From Gammaproteobacteria bacterium (GTDB lineage: Bacteria > Pseudomonadota > Gammaproteobacteria > Eutrophobiales > Eutrophobiaceae), in contig WLWS01000003.1 of the NCBI GenBank assembly GCA_012103475.1, positions 248,001 through 312,000 on the forward strand: DNA of 64,000 nucleotides, given 5' to 3'. This document shows positions 10,421 to 64,000 of the stretch, piece by piece. Numbering within the stretch: position 1 is the stretch's first letter; the number at the start of each line of letters is the position of its first letter. The notes under the pieces were generated by a model. The model was not told the DNA's origin, searched no databases, and saw nothing but the letters and a program-made list of their open reading frames with translations. The translations under genes were made by a program, and so were the position numbers.

Positions 10421-13063
10421 CTAATCTTCTGCCGCGATCTGGCTGGCAAGCATACTTGGTAAAATAAATAGCATACAAATAAGCGTCATGGCGACGCCAA
10501 TTGTCAGTAATTTGCCCATACTAGCGGTTCCGAGTTGCGGAGAAAATGCCAGATTTCCAATACTACCCATAGTCGTCATTGAGCTGACGACAACGGCGCG
10601 AGCGGAACTGGTACCAAGTAATCCAAGATCAGATGGCATGGCGGTTCTAAACCGATGCAGTATATGGATACCGCTATCGACACCAATACCCAGTATCAGT
10701 GGTAAAGCGATCACATTTGCGAAATTTAGCGGTAAATCGAAAACCACACTCAATCCACCAGTAAGTATTGCAGCCGTCAATAAAGCGGAAACGATATAGA
10801 ATGCATCGCGTTTATGCCTAAGCAGGACGAGCAAAAACAAAGTTATGACTATCAGGGCATAAGTGAAGGCTTGTTGAAATGCCTTGATAACAGCATCACT
10901 TGCTTCAATATTTATTATGGGAGAGCCGACCACGCGGGAATCTGCTGCCTGTAGCTGAGTAACAAAACGTCTCATTGCTGCGTTATCCTGAATGTTTTCT
11001 GCAGGATAAATTTCTATGAGAAAACGTTCGTTGTCACGATTTACCCAGCGTTCAGTCAGCTCATCGGGCAAATTATTATAATTAATATAGTCTGCATTCA
11101 GAGAAGCCGACAGGGTATTCAAACGTCCTGGCAGGGATGCGAGTAAACTGCCTTCGAAGCGAGCAAGTTTTTTAGCCAGACTATCGCTATTAGTTTGCTG
11201 ATTGAGACTAACAAAATCAGCAAGATTCTGTTGTAGTTCCAGTAAAAGAGGATCAGATTGCGTGAGTGGAGACTGTTGAAGCCGTTTAGAAAACTGAAGC
11301 AATATTTGCAAACGCTGTTGGTCATTTAGCTGACGGGTATCGGAGGCCGATGTGAGATCCCCTAACAACAGATCCATTTCTTCTATAATAGAAAGCTTAT
11401 TGTCCTGATCTTCTGGAATGAAGTCATCAAGCCAGACAAGCTTTCTAACAAGGGGTAATTGTGAAAATTTATCTACCAGCTCTTTTGATTCTTCCTTACT
11501 CGAGCCAAGAATAATACCAGTCCAGGGAGAGGTGTCGCTATCGGCAAGCAGAGACTGATAGACTTTAACAGATTCATTGCTCTGATCCTGAAGATTGAGG
11601 GTGTTGTAATCAAATTCCACCTGTGTGATAAAACCAAGCAAAATACATACTGTCAGCAATGTCGCGAGTTTAATTTTGCCCGCGTGAGTAAATGGAAGCG
11701 TAAACAACCAGTCAAAACGCCGGTTTGATTTGCGTTTAACAGATTTATTACTTTCTGGTAGAGGCATCAGATTTAATAAGGCGGGTAACAGTGTTAGCGT
11801 CACTATCAGGGATATGAACATACCACCACCGGAAATCCAGCCGAGTTCAGCAACTCCGTCGTAGTCGGTTGGCATAAACGCAAAGAAACCGGTTGCCGTC
11901 GTAGCGGCGCAAAGAAACAGGGAACTACCGATATTCATCGAAGACTCCTGGATAGCCCTCAGGTTGTCATGTCCGCTGTAGCGAAGTTCGCGATAACGCA
12001 AACAGTAATGTATCGCGAAATCTACCCCTAATCCTATATAAAGCACGGCAAAGGCAACTGATATAAGGTTTAGTTTTCCGACAGTTGCGGTAGCGAAGGC
12101 AGCAGTAAGAATCAGACCAAATACCAATGTTAGCAGTGTCGCTACCACCAGTCTTAACGAGCCCAGTCCCACTAACATGATGATTGAGACCATGGAAAAA
12201 GCGAGAATCATCGCTATTTCTGTTCCTCTGGTCACCGAGAGCAGATCTTCGTGCGAAAGAGCCGCACTACCACTTAGGCGAAGTTTCGCGCCAATGCTTT
12301 GCTCAAGCTCAAGTTCACGGCCGAGTTGTCGAATTCGTTCGATGTGACTGGTAGCCGGGAGCAAACTACTGTAGTCAAGAGTCGGTTGCAAAATAATAAA
12401 CTGACGGTAAACGCTTTTGGGATCATCAGCACCCTCATTGTTCATCAGCTGATGCCAACTTACTCTGTAAGCTTCATTCTTCTCCGCAGCAGTAATAGCA
12501 TCATTGATTTGTCTAAGCAGTAATTTGATATCAATTTCATCACCATCTTCACGGGCTTTCAGGGCATCTTCGAGCATGTGAAAAAGACCACGCAGGGTTT
12601 GATCTCGAGTAAGTCTGCCAAGAAAAGGCTGGATAGTAGCCAGATTGTCAGCCAAATCCTGCAATTCTTCAGTATCCAGAAACAACAAAGCCGATTCTTT
12701 AAAAATAGTCAGTTCACTGGGGTAATAGACGGACTTAAATAAGGTCTTTTCCTTTAGCAGTTCAGGATAGAGAAGATTGGCTGCATCGATGGCCTGATCC
12801 GGCGTGCCAGCTTCGATTACAATAAGAAGATTATCGGTGTACTGAGGAAAGTTCTTCTCATACTCAAGATCCAACTGTCTCCAGGCAAGATCTGCCGACA
12901 ACATATCTTTGGTGTCCGTATTCATTCCAAGATTATTCTTGGTGTAATTCAGAGCGAGAATGGCAAGCATGACACAGGCAAGTATGACCCAGAGATCAAA
13001 CCTCTGGATTAAGTCTATCCAATGCTTCAGAAAAAGAAGAGATTTGTCTTTAATGTAGGACAT
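10421..13063 (-). CDS. hpnN: HpnN, hopanoid transporter of the RND superfamily
   Basis: The 880-residue inner-membrane protein has the RND/MMPL layout: an N-terminal helix, a large periplasmic loop, a six-helix sterol-sensing-like block (AMILAFSMVSIIMLVGLGSLRL through LLPALLNLMPLP), a second loop and a second six-helix block ending in LICMLFILPSML. Conserved RND motifs include GLGVDFAIHYCLRYRE and the mirrored GIGVDSGIHILHRFR. In Rhodopseudomonas and Burkholderia HpnN moves hopanoids to the outer membrane. The ATG at 13063 follows a TTG at 13066. It is upstream of, and coupled to, hpnA. Length matches the family. Confidence 0.95.
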   Translation of the reverse strand: MSYIKDKSLLFLKHWIDLIQRFDLWVILACVMLAILALNYTKNNLGMNTDTKDMLSADLAWRQLDLEYEKNFPQYTDNLLIVIEAGTPDQAIDAANLLYPELLKEKTLFKSVYYPSELTIFKESALLFLDTEELQDLADNLATIQPFLGRLTRDQTLRGLFHMLEDALKAREDGDEIDIKLLLRQINDAITAAEKNEAYRVSWHQLMNNEGADDPKSVYRQFIILQPTLDYSSLLPATSHIERIRQLGRELELEQSIGAKLRLSGSAALSHEDLLSVTRGTEIAMILAFSMVSIIMLVGLGSLRLVVATLLTLVFGLILTAAFATATVGKLNLISVAFAVLYIGLGVDFAIHYCLRYRELRYSGHDNLRAIQESSMNIGSSLFLCAATTATGFFAFMPTDYDGVAELGWISGGGMFISLIVTLTLLPALLNLMPLPESNKSVKRKSNRRFDWLFTLPFTHAGKIKLATLLTVCILLGFITQVEFDYNTLNLQDQSNESVKVYQSLLADSDTSPWTGIILGSSKEESKELVDKFSQLPLVRKLVWLDDFIPEDQDNKLSIIEEMDLLLGDLTSASDTRQLNDQQRLQILLQFSKRLQQSPLTQSDPLLLELQQNLADFVSLNQQTNSDSLAKKLARFEGSLLASLPGRLNTLSASLNADYINYNNLPDELTERWVNRDNERFLIEIYPAENIQDNAAMRRFVTQLQAADSRVVGSPIINIEASDAVIKAFQQAFTYALIVITLFLLVLLRHKRDAFYIVSALLTAAILTGGLSVVFDLPLNFANVIALPLILGIGVDSGIHILHRFRTAMPSDLGLLGTSSARAVVVSSMTTMGSIGNLAFSPQLGTASMGKLLTIGVAMTLICMLFILPSMLASQIAAED

Positions 13064-57801: not shown

Positions 57802-60800
57802 TCAGTCAGTTCTTATAAAGACGTCAGTCCAAGCAACGCCTTCAGTTAATGCAGGGTTCCTAGGCTCATTAGATGGACGCCCTTCTTCGCGTCTTTGACA
57901 TTCCAATTCAAGTAACAACTTTCTGGAAATTGTCGCAGACAAGTTTGTCTCTTTTGCTCTGATTAACAGGCTATTTCGCAATTCATTACAGGCTTTGGGA
58001 TGTATTTCGTAATTCGATTCATCTCCAATTGGCACATGAAGCGAAAACATATTTTTTAACATGTAGTAAGGGGACCCTCCTGAAGTTTCAATCCTGCCTG
58101 AATCTATGGCATCTAATCCGTATTTCATTCGAATGGCATCATGTTCTGGTGTTAATGATAGAATCTCGCACGCGAAATCATCGGCAGCAACTACGCTAGC
58201 GCTTTCGCAAGCTGCTAAGAAGGCATCTAGATATGAGTTATCTTTTTCAATTACATGCAACACTTTAGGAGCAATTCGTCTAAGATCCCAATTGCTATTA
58301 CACCATTTGAACCAAGTTCTATCGACAATATTGTGAAGGAACTCATTAAAATGAACGGAGCGAAGAGAAGATGCTAGGGCAGTTGCTAATTGTAGAGAAG
58401 ATTCCTTGTTAAGTTGTTGAGTCTTACCAAGCTCCAAAAGTAAACCCCAAGTCTCTTCTAACGGAATTAATTCAAGCTGTTGAATTATATTGCCGATGTA
58501 GGTAAATCGTTTCCATTCAATAACGTAAAAACTTAGTGACTTATTCAACAAAGATACAGGTTTGACGAAAAACATAAGTTGACATAGTTCCGACATCATC
58601 TGTTTCTTAGAATCGTCGAACCATTCAGCCTTGATCTCTTTATCAAACATAGCTTCAATTCTTGCAGCTACCGCTGGATCCTCAATAAAAATACCCTGAC
58701 CAATAAGTTTTGTTAATGTACCAACTAAGCTATAAATGTCAGTGTGGCCATTGGCTAATGCATACATTATAGGCTCTACTATTTCTTGACTCGGTATATT
58801 TGATACTGCGCCAAGCAGTTCCCTCATACGATGGATTGCATATTTTTCGTTCCACTCCGAATTATTAGAAGCTTTCTCTGATTGCAGTTGTCCAACAAGT
58901 CCGATCAATTTTGTAGATAAAGCTTTGGCTGTAACATCCGTCGTTTCTTGATAAGTTTCATCTGGTTGGCTGAGTACCCTTTTCGCTATTCGTCGTTCTA
59001 TCCCATCTTTGAAGTTATCCCCTATAGATTGGAACATCCCTTTCTTTTTACTTTGCCAAGGTTCTCCCACTATGGTTCCGATTATTGCTGGTATTAGTCT
59101 GTGTGCATGAGGATGCTCAAGCATTTCCACAAGGCAGGGAAGAGCTTCAAAACCCCAGTTTTCCATTGCGGATTTGAGATAAACCCCGAGATGCGGGTTG
59201 ATCGGGCGGTTTCCCACTCTACTCTTTTGCCATTGGTCGAATATATTGCTATAAGTTTCCCAAGATTCAAGATATAAACGACATCCCTCTAGCAGAAAGT
59301 CATTGAAGTCAGCTGGTGCTACGTGACTTGCAATTAAGCATAATAAGAGATGTACTTTATGCTGTGGAACTGCTTCTTCACTGCTAATCGCTCCAAAGGT
59401 TGCGATTAGGCTTTGAACAGACTCTATATTTGGCTTCCAATTGGTTTTATCTTGTTCATAATTCTCGTTGAGATTCATGCGATATTTTACTAGATCTAAT
59501 AATATGACCGCTTCTTCGTAAGAAGATTTGTCCCCGATTTCTATGACAATGCTGAGCAAGTCGTTTCCTGGAGCATGAGCAAGCAGATTGGCCAACTTTC
59601 TATCTCGATTTTTCTCAGTCTCAGATAGTTCACTTCGACTGGACTTCGAACAAGTTAACCACTTTTGAATGCTGCGGAGTGTTTGCTCACGATTGGAAAG
59701 AGGCCCTATTACCTCAGAACAAAAATTCGTGGGTTCTTCTTCATCAAGGAGAGTCCAAGCTTTCTCAAAAATATCGAACTTGTTCTCGACTGATTCAAGC
59801 AGGACAATATCACAGACCCAGTCAGCGACACGTCGTTTTGACAAGACCAATTCCCGTGCTAATGCATACATTCGATCAGGTGTACGCTTTTTCATGATCT
59901 CCATTATTTGTGTATCGTTGACGTCGAGATTCTTAGACAATCTAGCTAAGACAACATCTATAGCGTTTGGTTGAATCATTTTGGGGAATGTTATGATAAG
60001 TCGATATAGCAACTCTTCGTTCTTGAGTTCATGTGACAAACTTCCCAATTTTTTATTCACCTCATCATTAGTGACCCCCTGTTCCAATAAATATGCAATC
60101 ATACTGATGACATTTTGTTCAAGCTGCACTTCGAGTGGTGCATTTAACCATGCCCGTAATGTGTCATCAGATGCAGGGAAACTCCATGCAAGAGCAAAAA
60201 TGGCCGCTGCTCGAACCTCGTCTTCGATGGCCTCATTTGCCATTCGGACCAGAAATGCATAGTTTTCTGGATTGCCAGACAATTCATGTATCAACTCAGC
60301 TCGCAACTGTGGTGACCATGCTGCTATTCGTGTCTCCGCAGATTTGCCGAGTTGATTCAGTGAAATTCCTCCTCCGTTTAATCGATATGTTTTGAGTCTA
60401 ATTTGTTGATCCTCACTTTCTATAAGCGGCCAGAGTCGGTGAGCAAAGCCGCAAATGCCTGAGGTAATTACACAGATAATTCCGTAATCAATCATCTCGG
60501 GTAATGAGGAATCGCAGAGCTTATTTATATGCGTAACTAGGTCATGGTATAGGTCGCTATTGTCAGCTTCAGAAAATCCACAGGCTCCGGCCAAGTCGCA
60601 AGCAAACCCCACATCAACTTCCAAAGCTATTCTTATCAATAAACTCCTAGCTTTATTGTGACTATCTTTATTTTTTAACATTCCGCAAACTAATCGGAGA
60701 GCATCTTCCCAGAAAGGCTGATTAATGGCTTCTCTAAGTATCGGAAGGTTTTGCTCATTAGCATCGAGAATAAATCCCAATAATCTTGAAGCGGAAAAGT

Positions 60801-61419
60801 ATTCTTGAAATCGTTGATGGGCGAAACGAACAGTTTCTCCATCTACATGAATGAGATGATGATTACTTAAAACATCGATAACATTGTTCGGTTCAGGTGA
60901 ATTACCAAACCCATCATTGACGAGCTGATTGGCTGCTGCAGAAATTACACGTAATACTTCGCTAAACGAAGAGGTGGTTTCGCGATTTGAATTTAGGTGG
61001 CAGGCCAATTCCTCCAAATAATGTCGATGATGATTGAATAGGGGTGATTCCTTGAGAGTGAGCTGACGCTGTTCATCCTCTTCAAACTTATCCACAACAG
61101 AGCCAAGGAGTTCGTATACACTTGATGCTGTTATCTGACCTTTCTCCGCCTGGCCTAGTAATCCCCTAAGTATCAGAGGGTTTCTTGCTGCATGACGCAA
61201 ACGCGTATCCACAGCCAGTATTTTTAAGAGCGCTTTTGCCGATTCCTCATTTAACTCGGAGCGAATCACATTCCTTTGAGAGTGCCATGTTAAACCTTGG
61301 ACATGAATGCGTGTCTTAGTGTTTAGATCTGGGCAATCCACACGTGAACGCGTCACTATGACAGTATTCAATGAATGCATCATCGAGGTCAACTCTCTGA
61401 AACGCCCAAAACATGCCAA
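57802..61419 (-). pseudogene. NACHT-type STAND protein missing its P-loop half, with long HEAT-like C-terminus
   Basis: The 1205-codon frame has no good start (a TTG without a ribosome site), and in the same frame upstream only VELAGNQK precedes it before a stop. The N-terminus corresponds to the middle of a NACHT NTPase: FRELTSMMHSLNTVIVTRSR (sensor-1 like), NPLILRGLLGQ and the winged-helix end VRFAHQRFQEYFSASRLL. Walker A and B are absent from this frame and from the gene upstream. The remaining 950 residues are helical HEAT-like repeats (EDEVRAAAIFALAWSF), usually the sensor part. Such NTPases commonly act in anti-phage defence. I read it as the remnant of a DUF4062-NACHT-HEAT protein, possibly still expressed as a split form. 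Confidence 0.7.
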
Positions 61420-61426
61420 TTTCTGG

Positions 61427-62065
61427 TTACCAGCTAATTCTACCCATTTCTATTAGTGATAAGGCTACTTTTCGGAATCGATCCAACGTGGTACTGGCAA
61501 TTTGAGTTGGCGGTAAGATATCATTTAATTTTGACCGCAATAGCTCAACTGCTAATCGATCAGCATTGCTGAAATTAATTTCCGGGTACCTTTCGACTTG
61601 TGCCAAAGCTTTCAGATGAAGTTGTTGAGACGATTTCTGGTCGTCAAAGAGCCGGTACTCTTCGTACCGTGGTGTGTCGTCAAGGGGCTTTGCAATGATC
61701 AGCATTTTGCGGTGGTAAAGAGCCAGCCATGCCTCCCACTGAGTGTACGATAATACAAGCTCGGTCGATTTCAAATATGGTTTTAAGACCGGCAACCGTA
61801 CTGCAAGGTCCGGATAACGCCGCTGGATCAACTCTACAGAGGGTAATTGGGCGAAGGCGCCTGTCATGTCACCGACAAGATGGATCACAGCATCAGATTG
61901 ACGGATGTAATCATCCAATTTATCAAGAGTTTCCTCACCAGTTCCGATAAAATCCTCTTGCACGTTTACGGAGAGGTTAGGGCGAGTCAAATCCTTACGT
62001 AAAGAGTCGCGATAGTTTCGGAACTCAGCGCTAACTGCAGAGAGGAAGAGTTTTACATCAGCCAA
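61427..62065 (-). CDS. DUF4062 domain protein (N-terminal part of a STAND-type protein)
   Basis: The 212-residue protein starts at a TTG with AAAGG nine bases upstream; a TAA closes the frame before it, so no longer start exists. DVKLFLSAVSAEFRNYRDSL and QEDFIGTGEETLDKLDDYIRQSDAVIHLVGD are the DUF4062 pattern, a Rossmann-like domain often placed in front of NACHT or NB-ARC NTPases and thought to be an effector or adaptor. LPPTQIASTTLDRF is the usual linker that leads into the NTPase. Here the frame stops 7 bp before the NACHT remnant. This suggests one ancestral gene, split by deletion or frameshift. Confidence 0.82.
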   Translation of the reverse strand: MADVKLFLSAVSAEFRNYRDSLRKDLTRPNLSVNVQEDFIGTGEETLDKLDDYIRQSDAVIHLVGDMTGAFAQLPSVELIQRRYPDLAVRLPVLKPYLKSTELVLSYTQWEAWLALYHRKMLIIAKPLDDTPRYEEYRLFDDQKSSQQLHLKALAQVERYPEINFSNADRLAVELLRSKLNDILPPTQIASTTLDRFRKVALSLIEMGRISW

Positions 62066-62614: not shown

Positions 62615-62890
62615 TCAATGTTTCTTTGATTTCATATCGATGTTAACAGCCCAGATACGTAATTCCTCAGAAGTCATTCTCCCAGTCTCAATATCTGATA
62701 TGTCCTCGGCTGATAGTTTTGCTACTAAATCTTTTTGTGAGAGCTGCAGACCTCTACATGCATTGCTTAATCTATCATTGATTCGGTGAGTATTACGTGT
62801 ATTTGTGGTTACTTTTAACTCACTGATACTTTTTGCCTGCCTTTCATTCGCGTTAATAGTAGAAAAACCCGTATTACTCGTAAAACTCAC
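62615..62890 (-). CDS. Small XRE-like helix-turn-helix protein
   Basis: The track starts at a TTG (62908), but the GTG at 62890 overlaps the primase stop as GTGA, a classical coupling overlap, and gives 91 residues. The C-terminal half, LQLSQKDLVAKLSAEDISDIETGRMT, fits the XRE helix-turn-helix pattern (sQ.eLa.kl....Is.iE.G). The N-terminal 45 residues are polar and match nothing I know. Small regulators of this kind are common in integrative elements. The HTH call is from pattern only. Confidence 0.6.
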   Translation of the reverse strand: MSFTSNTGFSTINANERQAKSISELKVTTNTRNTHRINDRLSNACRGLQLSQKDLVAKLSAEDISDIETGRMTSEELRIWAVNIDMKSKKH

Positions 62891-64000
62891 TGATTGTTGC
62901 AATGCCAAGCTTGCGCGCGATGTACTTCACCACCACGAGTGATACGTAAACCTTCACACACTCTTCCTTCCCACCGACTAATCCTCCTTCCTAATCGCCT
63001 AGTGTTGATTTTGTTTCCATCAGCTGCTATTACGTGGATAACATCACGAAGTGCATCATGCATTTCATCGCCCCCGCTTGATATATCCATAGCCATTTGA
63101 CGGACCAGAACTTCTTTGTCTTTATATAGATCCCACCAGGCAAGAAGAAATTCCCCTAATTGCTCCCGATCTGGATCAATTTGTTCGACACGACTTCTTG
63201 TTTCGCAGGGATCTGCGGCTCCGGCCCAAACAAGAGGTGAGCGAACCAAAGCATCCCACTCCTCGAATCTACCGAATGGCTTTAGGCCAGTATCTGGCCG
63301 ACCTGCAACTTGATAGGCTTTGAGTAACGTTAGTGCAGCATTCACAAATTCATATCGATTCGTTAATACATAGTCTCTTAGATTACTGCGTTTGAAAATT
63401 CGTTCCTCAGGATGTTCAACCACAGGGTCAAGACGCGATATTAAAATGCGAGTTGAAAGGTCCCCTCGAATAGTTAAATTATTCCCTGTTATAATCAATA
63501 CAACCGCAGTGGAAACGGCGATAATCTTTGTTTCTCCAAGCAACCTACCTTTAAATATTGGGCTTGTCGAGATAGTACAAAGTGTTTCACTCGTAATTAT
63601 ATTCTCCACATTGTCTATGACTAAAACTGGGTCACCTGCAAGGAGTACGGCTAGCAAACCCTTACCCATTTCTGTCTCATCTCGTGGCAGCGTCATGACG
63701 GCTGGTGACTGACCGTTAACTAAAAGACTAATTAGTGTTGCGAGGAATGTTTTACCAGACCCCATCACTGGCGCATCGAATCCAAAAAACGGAGCCGTTC
63801 TCAGTGACCAACGAATTAAAGCAGTTAACAGTGCAGCGAACCAGACTGATTCAGCTGCTGCGTCAATGAAAGGGAATTCACTTATGATTTCTCGTAATTT
63901 ATCTAGCGCCTTAACTGCATCTTCTTTAGTAAGGTTATCTTCGCGTTCTATCCTTATCCAATTTTTACTTTCTAGATACAGCGCTGTATCAAAATCGTAA
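62887..64000 (-). CDS. Plasmid/ICE-type primase-helicase AAA+ domain (N-terminus beyond window)
   Basis: The frame runs open from the right edge (YDFDTALYLESKNW...) past the track's ATG at 63768, so the listed start is internal. The part in view has ALLTALIRWSLRTAPFFGFDAPVMGSGKT as a Walker A region, Walker B VLVIDNVEN, and IITGNNLTIRGDLSTRILISRLDP, the sensor and arginine-finger segment of replicative helicases of phages, plasmids and integrative elements. FVNAALTLLKAYQVAGRPDTG and PLVWAGAADPCETR are hallmark downstream segments. It probably drives replication of a mobile element whose other genes lie to the right. Coupled by a 4-base overlap to the small XRE-like gene. Confidence 0.85.
   Translation of the reverse strand, partial: YDFDTALYLESKNWIRIEREDNLTKEDAVKALDKLREIISEFPFIDAAAESVWFAALLTALIRWSLRTAPFFGFDAPVMGSGKTFLATLISLLVNGQSPAVMTLPRDETEMGKGLLAVLLAGDPVLVIDNVENIITSETLCTISTSPIFKGRLLGETKIIAVSTAVVLIITGNNLTIRGDLSTRILISRLDPVVEHPEERIFKRSNLRDYVLTNRYEFVNAALTLLKAYQVAGRPDTGLKPFGRFEEWDALVRSPLVWAGAADPCETRSRVEQIDPDREQLGEFLLAWWDLYKDKEVLVRQMAMDISSGGDEMHDALRDVIHVIAADGNKINTRRLGRRISRWEGRVCEGLRITRGGEVHRAQAWHCNNQ

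What the first reader, a model, noticed from the sequence alone, without database searches (positions are those of the whole stretch)
57802..62065. DUF4062-NACHT-HEAT defence-like protein split in two, with the ATP-binding half gone
Seen: a DUF4062 frame stops 7 bp before a 1205-codon frame that opens inside a NACHT domain (sensor-1 and winged-helix segments present, Walker A/B absent). Known: DUF4062 is usually fused in front of STAND NTPases used in phage defence. Inference: an internal deletion of roughly 150-250 codons, perhaps with a frameshift at GAAATGGG near 61437-61444, turned one gene into two. If both parts are still made, this would be an unusual two-protein, ATPase-less arrangement.
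Basis: partly seen in the sequence, partly recalled or inferred. Interest (0 to 1): 0.62.

Follow-up and report, generated by a model that had tools for sequence, protein, structure and literature searches.

The report
Defence gene broken by internal deletion
A bacterial gene that probably once made a phage-sensing self-destruct protein has lost 392 bases, including its ATP-binding site, which leaves two fragments; this looks like ordinary gene decay and not a new two-part system.

Summary
A 212-aa DUF4062 frame (61427-62065, -) ends 7 bp before a 1205-codon frame (57802-61419, -) that begins inside a NACHT ATPase just after Walker B. An intact single-gene orthologue (L002, 1551 aa) aligns to both frames: residues 1-212 at 68% identity and 347-1547 at 55%. 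L002 residues 213-343, which carry the linker, Walker A (GEGGIGKT) and Walker B (NGWNEI), are missing from the window. The loss is 392 bp, out of frame, so the first frame meets a stop exactly at the junction and the second keeps its native frame without a proper start. No extra frameshift at GAAATGGG is needed. The lost block is not elsewhere in this assembly. A second full-length NACHT-HEAT homologue and three distant ones all keep the P-loop, and no homologue is split in the window's way. The gene sits inside a tRNA-Ser-linked integrase/primase element. Best reading: a recently inactivated copy of an NLR-like abortive-infection protein whose N-terminal effector is a TIR-like (DUF4062) domain. 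An assembly error cannot be excluded without reads. A working ATPase-less two-protein system is not supported.

The parts
61427..62065 (-). 5' fragment: DUF4062 (TIR-like) domain, 212 aa, TTG start with AAGG 9 nt upstream; its stop TAA (61427-61429) lies at the deletion junction
   Evidence: 68% identical to residues 1-212 of the intact L002 protein; candidate catalytic Glu111 in the invariant motif SYTQWEAWLA; AlphaFold2 model mean pLDDT 88
61428..61430 (-). Deletion junction: left arm homologous through the TGG codon (61430-61432), right arm homologous from AAC (61426-61428), one T ambiguous; 392 bp (L002 residues 213-343 with Walker A and Walker B) missing
   Evidence: DNA alignment to L002; L002 motif coordinates GEGGIGKT 261, NGWNEI 336, NQKL 344
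57802..61419 (-). 3' fragment: C-terminal part of NACHT (sensor 1, winged helix), helical HEAT-like sensor region and C-terminal NCAB2 domain, 1205 codons; no Shine-Dalgarno at the first TTG
   Evidence: 55% identical to L002 residues 347-1547
62887..64000 (-). C-terminal part of a 520-aa phage primase/helicase-like gene (continues beyond the window, L048:2888-4450), same strand, with its own GSGKT P-loop; not the missing NACHT block
   Evidence: phrog_29234 E 2e-99; phrog_19930 DNA polymerase/primase E 3e-24
62615..62908 (-). Small ORF, 97 aa, weak HTH-regulator similarity, between the primase-like gene and the DUF4062 fragment
   Evidence: phrog_2967, E 0.01, weak

Best explanation
The two frames are remnants of one gene for an NLR-like STAND protein: DUF4062 effector, NACHT ATPase, HEAT-like sensor, NCAB2. 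It was probably carried on a tRNA-Ser-linked integrase/primase element. A 392-bp out-of-frame deletion removed the linker, Walker A, the intervening strands and helices, and Walker B. Shown: the deletion relative to intact homologues, the premature stop at the junction, and the absence of the block elsewhere in the genome held. Inferred: the parent worked like other bacterial NACHT proteins, in which the C-terminal region senses a phage component, the ATPase oligomerises, and the N-terminal TIR-like domain depletes NAD+ to cause abortive infection. Without an ATPase and with effector and sensor unlinked, the copy is most likely inactive. The 3' fragment is probably hardly translated, because it has no start signal of its own. 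The rest of both frames shows no other decay, so the deletion is probably recent.
For: L002 (LNFF01000006.1) encodes an uninterrupted 1551-aa protein that covers both frames collinearly in one frame with GEGGIGKT at 261. The DNA alignment gives one gap of 392 bp in total between two well-matched arms. G736:C40 holds a second uninterrupted NACHT-HEAT core (48% identical to L002) with GAGGIGKT; three distant homologues (G645, Cupriavidus necator pBB1, Rhizobium sp. WSM4643) all have a P-loop of the type PPGTGKTT, PPGMGKTS or GPGTGKTT. At least 31 of 45 DUF4062 relatives carry a P-loop in the same frame. Other relatives are also broken, by apparent frameshifts (L003, L038, L043) or by two IS-like insertions (L007), so loss is recurrent. 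A search of the own genome with the intact protein found only residues 3-214 and 335-1546, at this locus. The 3' fragment keeps 38 of 43 residues invariant in five homologues, and its apparent rate excess disappears when composition-sensitive residues are excluded, as expected for a recent break. DUF4062 is reported as a TIR-like NADase in phage defence (PMC13174449, preprint).
Against: No reads were available, so an assembly error at the junction is possible. Only one close intact orthologue was found, at 55-68% identity, so the exact ancestral sequence and any microhomology at the junction are unknown. The long open 1205-codon frame without further damage would also be expected if the second frame were still selected.
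Confidence: 0.86

Rival explanations
1. Assembly artefact: the real genome has an intact gene and 392 bp were lost during assembly, for example by collapse between strain variants in a metagenome.
For: The host genome is an incomplete assembly (87% complete, 17 contigs) and no reads could be examined. The surrounding frame is otherwise undamaged.
Against: Both arms match L002 well right up to the junction, and no long direct repeat is seen there in the window. The contig is 632 kb long. Typical long-read errors are 1-2 bp indels, not 392-bp losses (general knowledge).
Confidence: 0.1
2. A working two-protein system: DUF4062 alone as effector and an ATPase-less HEAT/NCAB2 sensor protein, translationally coupled, acting without ATP.
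For: Both frames are open and on the same strand, 7 bp apart; all invariant DUF4062 positions are kept and 38 of 43 invariant positions of the second frame are kept. A short DUF4062 protein (Swarozyc) without NACHT works in phage defence (PMC13174449).
Against: No homologue with the same arrangement was found. The second frame starts mid-domain at an internal Leu codon with no Shine-Dalgarno. It retains half a NACHT fold, which is unlikely to be stable on its own (inference). The first frame ends without the Swarozyc-type auxiliary domain, which is required for defence in that system.
Confidence: 0.03
3. The two frames are joined by programmed frameshifting into one ATPase-less protein.
For: The two frames overlap openly for about eight codons around the junction.
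Against: No recognised slippery motif was seen by inspection. The product would still lack the ATPase core, and the overlap is a direct consequence of the deletion.
Confidence: 0.01

Closest known systems
Intact DUF4062-NACHT-HEAT-NCAB2 protein of Gammaproteobacteria bacterium Ga0077554 (L002:7001-11656)
   Same: Same domain order, 68% (N-terminal part) and 55% (C-terminal part) identical, same TTG start with AAGG upstream
   Different: Single 1551-aa frame with Walker A and B; the window lacks residues 213-343 and is out of frame
Bacterial NACHT (bNACHT) NLR-related phage-defence proteins (PMC12169576)
   Same: N-terminal effector, central NACHT, C-terminal sensor layout; remaining NACHT part aligns to intact homologues
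   Different: The ATP-binding half is deleted here; effector is DUF4062 (bNACHT25 and bNACHT32 carry a PD-(D/E)XK nuclease)
Swarozyc, DUF4062 TIR-like NADase abortive-infection system (PMC13174449, preprint)
   Same: DUF4062 domain with a conserved Glu in the proposed catalytic position
   Different: Swarozyc is a single protein with an HTH/winged portal-binding auxiliary domain; the window fragment has none
DUF4062 fused to other P-loop STAND-type ATPases (L004, L010, L016, L018 and others)
   Same: Same DUF4062 domain, about 59-67% identical, fused to a P-loop ATPase
   Different: Different ATPase and C-terminal region; no significant match to the window's second frame

Membership tests
NACHT STAND ATPase (bNACHT-type) | Walker A P-loop (GxxxxGK[ST]) | tested here: not met
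   Absent from both frames; present at L002 261-268 in the deleted block
NACHT STAND ATPase (bNACHT-type) | Walker B (hhhhDGhxE-like) | tested here: not met
   L002 LAVNGWNEI 333-341 lies in the deleted block; the second frame starts at residue 347
NACHT STAND ATPase (bNACHT-type) | Sensor 1, winged helix and C-terminal NACHT-associated region | tested here: met
   Alignment to five homologues; NCAB2 PF22726, 60.3 bits against cut-off 27
NACHT STAND ATPase (bNACHT-type) | Phage protection | not testable with these tools
   Needs an experiment
DUF4062 (TIR-like NADase) | Match to Pfam PF13271 at the curated cut-off | tested here: inconclusive
   23.3 bits against cut-off 24.7, E 7e-5; the intact L002 protein scores 15.9
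DUF4062 (TIR-like NADase) | Conserved catalytic Glu | tested here: met
   Glu111 in SYTQWEAWLA invariant in 13 homologues; its identity with E97 of KpSwz is inferred, not aligned
DUF4062 (TIR-like NADase) | TIR / nucleoside deoxyribosyltransferase-like fold | tested here: inconclusive
   Confident model (pLDDT 88); Foldseek matches to DNPH1, BcmB and TIR-APAZ are weak (target-normalised TM 0.66-0.72 for DNPH1 and BcmB, E about 2e-3 to 4e-3), mixed with Ras and FtsZ hits
Swarozyc | C-terminal HTH/winged auxiliary portal-binding domain on the DUF4062 protein | tested here: not met
   The fragment ends at residue 212; the model shows only one helix (191-206) after the domain

The most novel reading that the evidence does not exclude
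The deletion created a still-used two-protein locus, in which a free DUF4062 effector and a separate ATPase-less HEAT/NCAB2 sensor act together.
Probability: 0.03. Interest if true: 0.6.

Novelty: new member of a known kind. Interest (0 to 1): 0.17.

Why it matters
It is one more example of a probably costly abortive-infection type gene being switched off, here by removal of the ATPase core. Similar breaks in other DUF4062-STAND genes (frameshifts, IS insertions) suggest frequent loss. The intact L002 protein is a useful candidate for a bacterial DUF4062-NACHT phage-defence protein, a layout that PMC13174449 discusses for human TEP1 and NWD1. The broken copy itself is ordinary.

Tried and rejected
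A separate frameshift at GAAATGGG (61437-61444): rejected, since the left arm stays in frame through 61430. The P-loop of the neighbouring ORF as a third component: rejected, since it belongs to a 520-aa phage primase-like protein. Relaxed selection in the second frame: an apparent excess of changes on the window branch (164 against 88) fell to 26 against 20 once composition-sensitive residues were left out, and the DUF4062 half shows no excess, so no claim is made. A second attachment site for the element: no copy of the tRNA-Ser 3' end was found in the window. An empty site in same-genus genomes: the only hit, in G052, has no tRNA in the fetched stretch. Viral contigs gave no relatives of the second frame, phage records only one distant match to the L002 protein. 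PADLOC had no match for either frame.

Full report
What is there. The minus strand holds a 212-aa frame (61427-62065) and, 7 bp after its stop, a 1205-codon frame (57802-61419). Pfam gives DUF4062 for the first (E 7e-5, just under the cut-off) and NCAB2, a NACHT C-terminal alpha/beta domain, for the end of the second (E 3e-16). The first has a TTG start with AAGG 9 nt upstream, as has its orthologue. The TTG opening the second has no such signal.

The two frames are one gene with a piece missing. A scan of bacterial genomes with the first frame gave 45 relatives. One of them, L002, also matches the whole second frame. L002 encodes one uninterrupted 1551-aa protein. The first frame matches residues 1-212 (68%) and the second matches 347-1547 (55%). 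The DNA alignment shows 392 bp missing between the TGG codon at 61430-61432 and the AAC at 61426-61428, with one T ambiguous (the aligner scattered the last few left-arm bases, which the protein alignment places as EMGRISW against EVGRVTW). The gap removes residues 213-343, which include Walker A (GEGGIGKT, 261) and Walker B (NGWNEI, 336). Because 392 is not a multiple of three, the first frame runs into TAA at the junction and the second frame continues in its native register from an internal Leu codon. The region around 61437-61444 is collinear and in frame with L002, so no extra frameshift is needed.

Homologues keep the ATPase. A genome in the same class (G736) has an uninterrupted NACHT-HEAT core 48% identical to that of L002, with GAGGIGKT, behind a different N-terminal domain. 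Three more distant homologues (G645, Cupriavidus necator pBB1, Rhizobium sp. WSM4643) also have the P-loop. Among the 45 DUF4062 relatives at least 31 have a P-loop in the same frame. No homologue of the second frame was found in 53 genomes of the family (the order search, covered the same genomes), apart from the window's own. Searching the host genome with the intact L002 protein found only residues 3-214 and 335-1546, at this locus, so the missing block has not moved elsewhere in the assembly held.

Similar genes break often. In relatives the DUF4062-STAND gene is interrupted by apparent frameshifts (L003, L038, L043, L027) or by two copies of an IS3-like transposase element (L007). Some of the frameshifts could be sequencing errors, since several of these are metagenome assemblies. 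The IS3-like label rests on reading the 305-aa transposase frame, not on a database search.

Age of the break. The second frame keeps 38 of 43 residues that are invariant in five homologues. It first seemed to evolve faster than L002 (164 against 88 unique changes), but L002 and the outgroup are both GC-richer, and without composition-sensitive residues the numbers are 26 and 20. The first frame shows no excess. So there is no sign of long decay, and the deletion is probably recent. This test has limited power.

Setting. Upstream on the same strand lie a 97-aa ORF, a 520-aa phage primase/helicase-like gene (phrog_29234, E 2e-99), a 216-aa ORF and a tyrosine integrase next to tRNA-Ser(GGA). On the other side are an SGNH/GDSL hydrolase gene and an exopolysaccharide-type gene cluster. 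The locus is therefore probably cargo of an integrated element. No second attachment site was found, so its far end is undefined.

How the parent probably worked (inferred). DUF4062 is reported as a TIR-like NADase that acts in phage defence by abortive infection in the Swarozyc system and lies beside a NACHT ATPase in human TEP1 and NWD1 (PMC13174449, preprint). The window's DUF4062 keeps every invariant position, including Glu111 in SYTQWEAWLA, the likely catalytic residue. The predicted fold is confident, but its structural matches are weak and mixed: deoxyribosyltransferase-like and TIR proteins alongside Ras-like ones. Bacterial NACHT proteins link detection of infection with an antimicrobial response, in some cases through an N-terminal nuclease effector (PMC12169576). 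The intact protein therefore probably senses a phage component through its C-terminal region, oligomerises through NACHT and depletes NAD+. The window's copy has lost the ATP-binding core and the physical link between effector and sensor, so it is most likely inactive.

Verdict. Remaining doubt is mainly whether the 392-bp loss is in the organism or in the assembly.

Noticed in passing
L048:2616-6982 (window 62615-64000 and beyond): tRNA-Ser(GGA), tyrosine integrase, 216-aa ORF, 520-aa primase-like gene and a 97-aa ORF lie directly upstream of the broken gene: an integrated element that probably carried it. No second attachment site was found in the window.
   Followed up: partly
L007:7708-8995 and 10557-11811: A Nitrosomonas DUF4062-STAND gene is interrupted by two copies of the same IS3-like element (305-aa transposase frame), in opposite orientations.
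   Followed up: partly
L059:6504-11219 (G736): A full-length NACHT-HEAT protein homologous to the L002 core has a different, unidentified N-terminal domain in place of DUF4062, a sign of effector swapping.
   Followed up: no
L002:7001-11656 and L059:6504-11219: In both intact close homologues the first acidic residue of Walker B is Asn (NGWNE), whereas three distant homologues have DGWNE.
   Followed up: no
L048:8771-9385: A CheY-like response regulator frame is preceded in frame by about 70 residues that look like a transposase helix-turn-helix segment; possibly an upstream remnant or a start-codon question.
   Followed up: no
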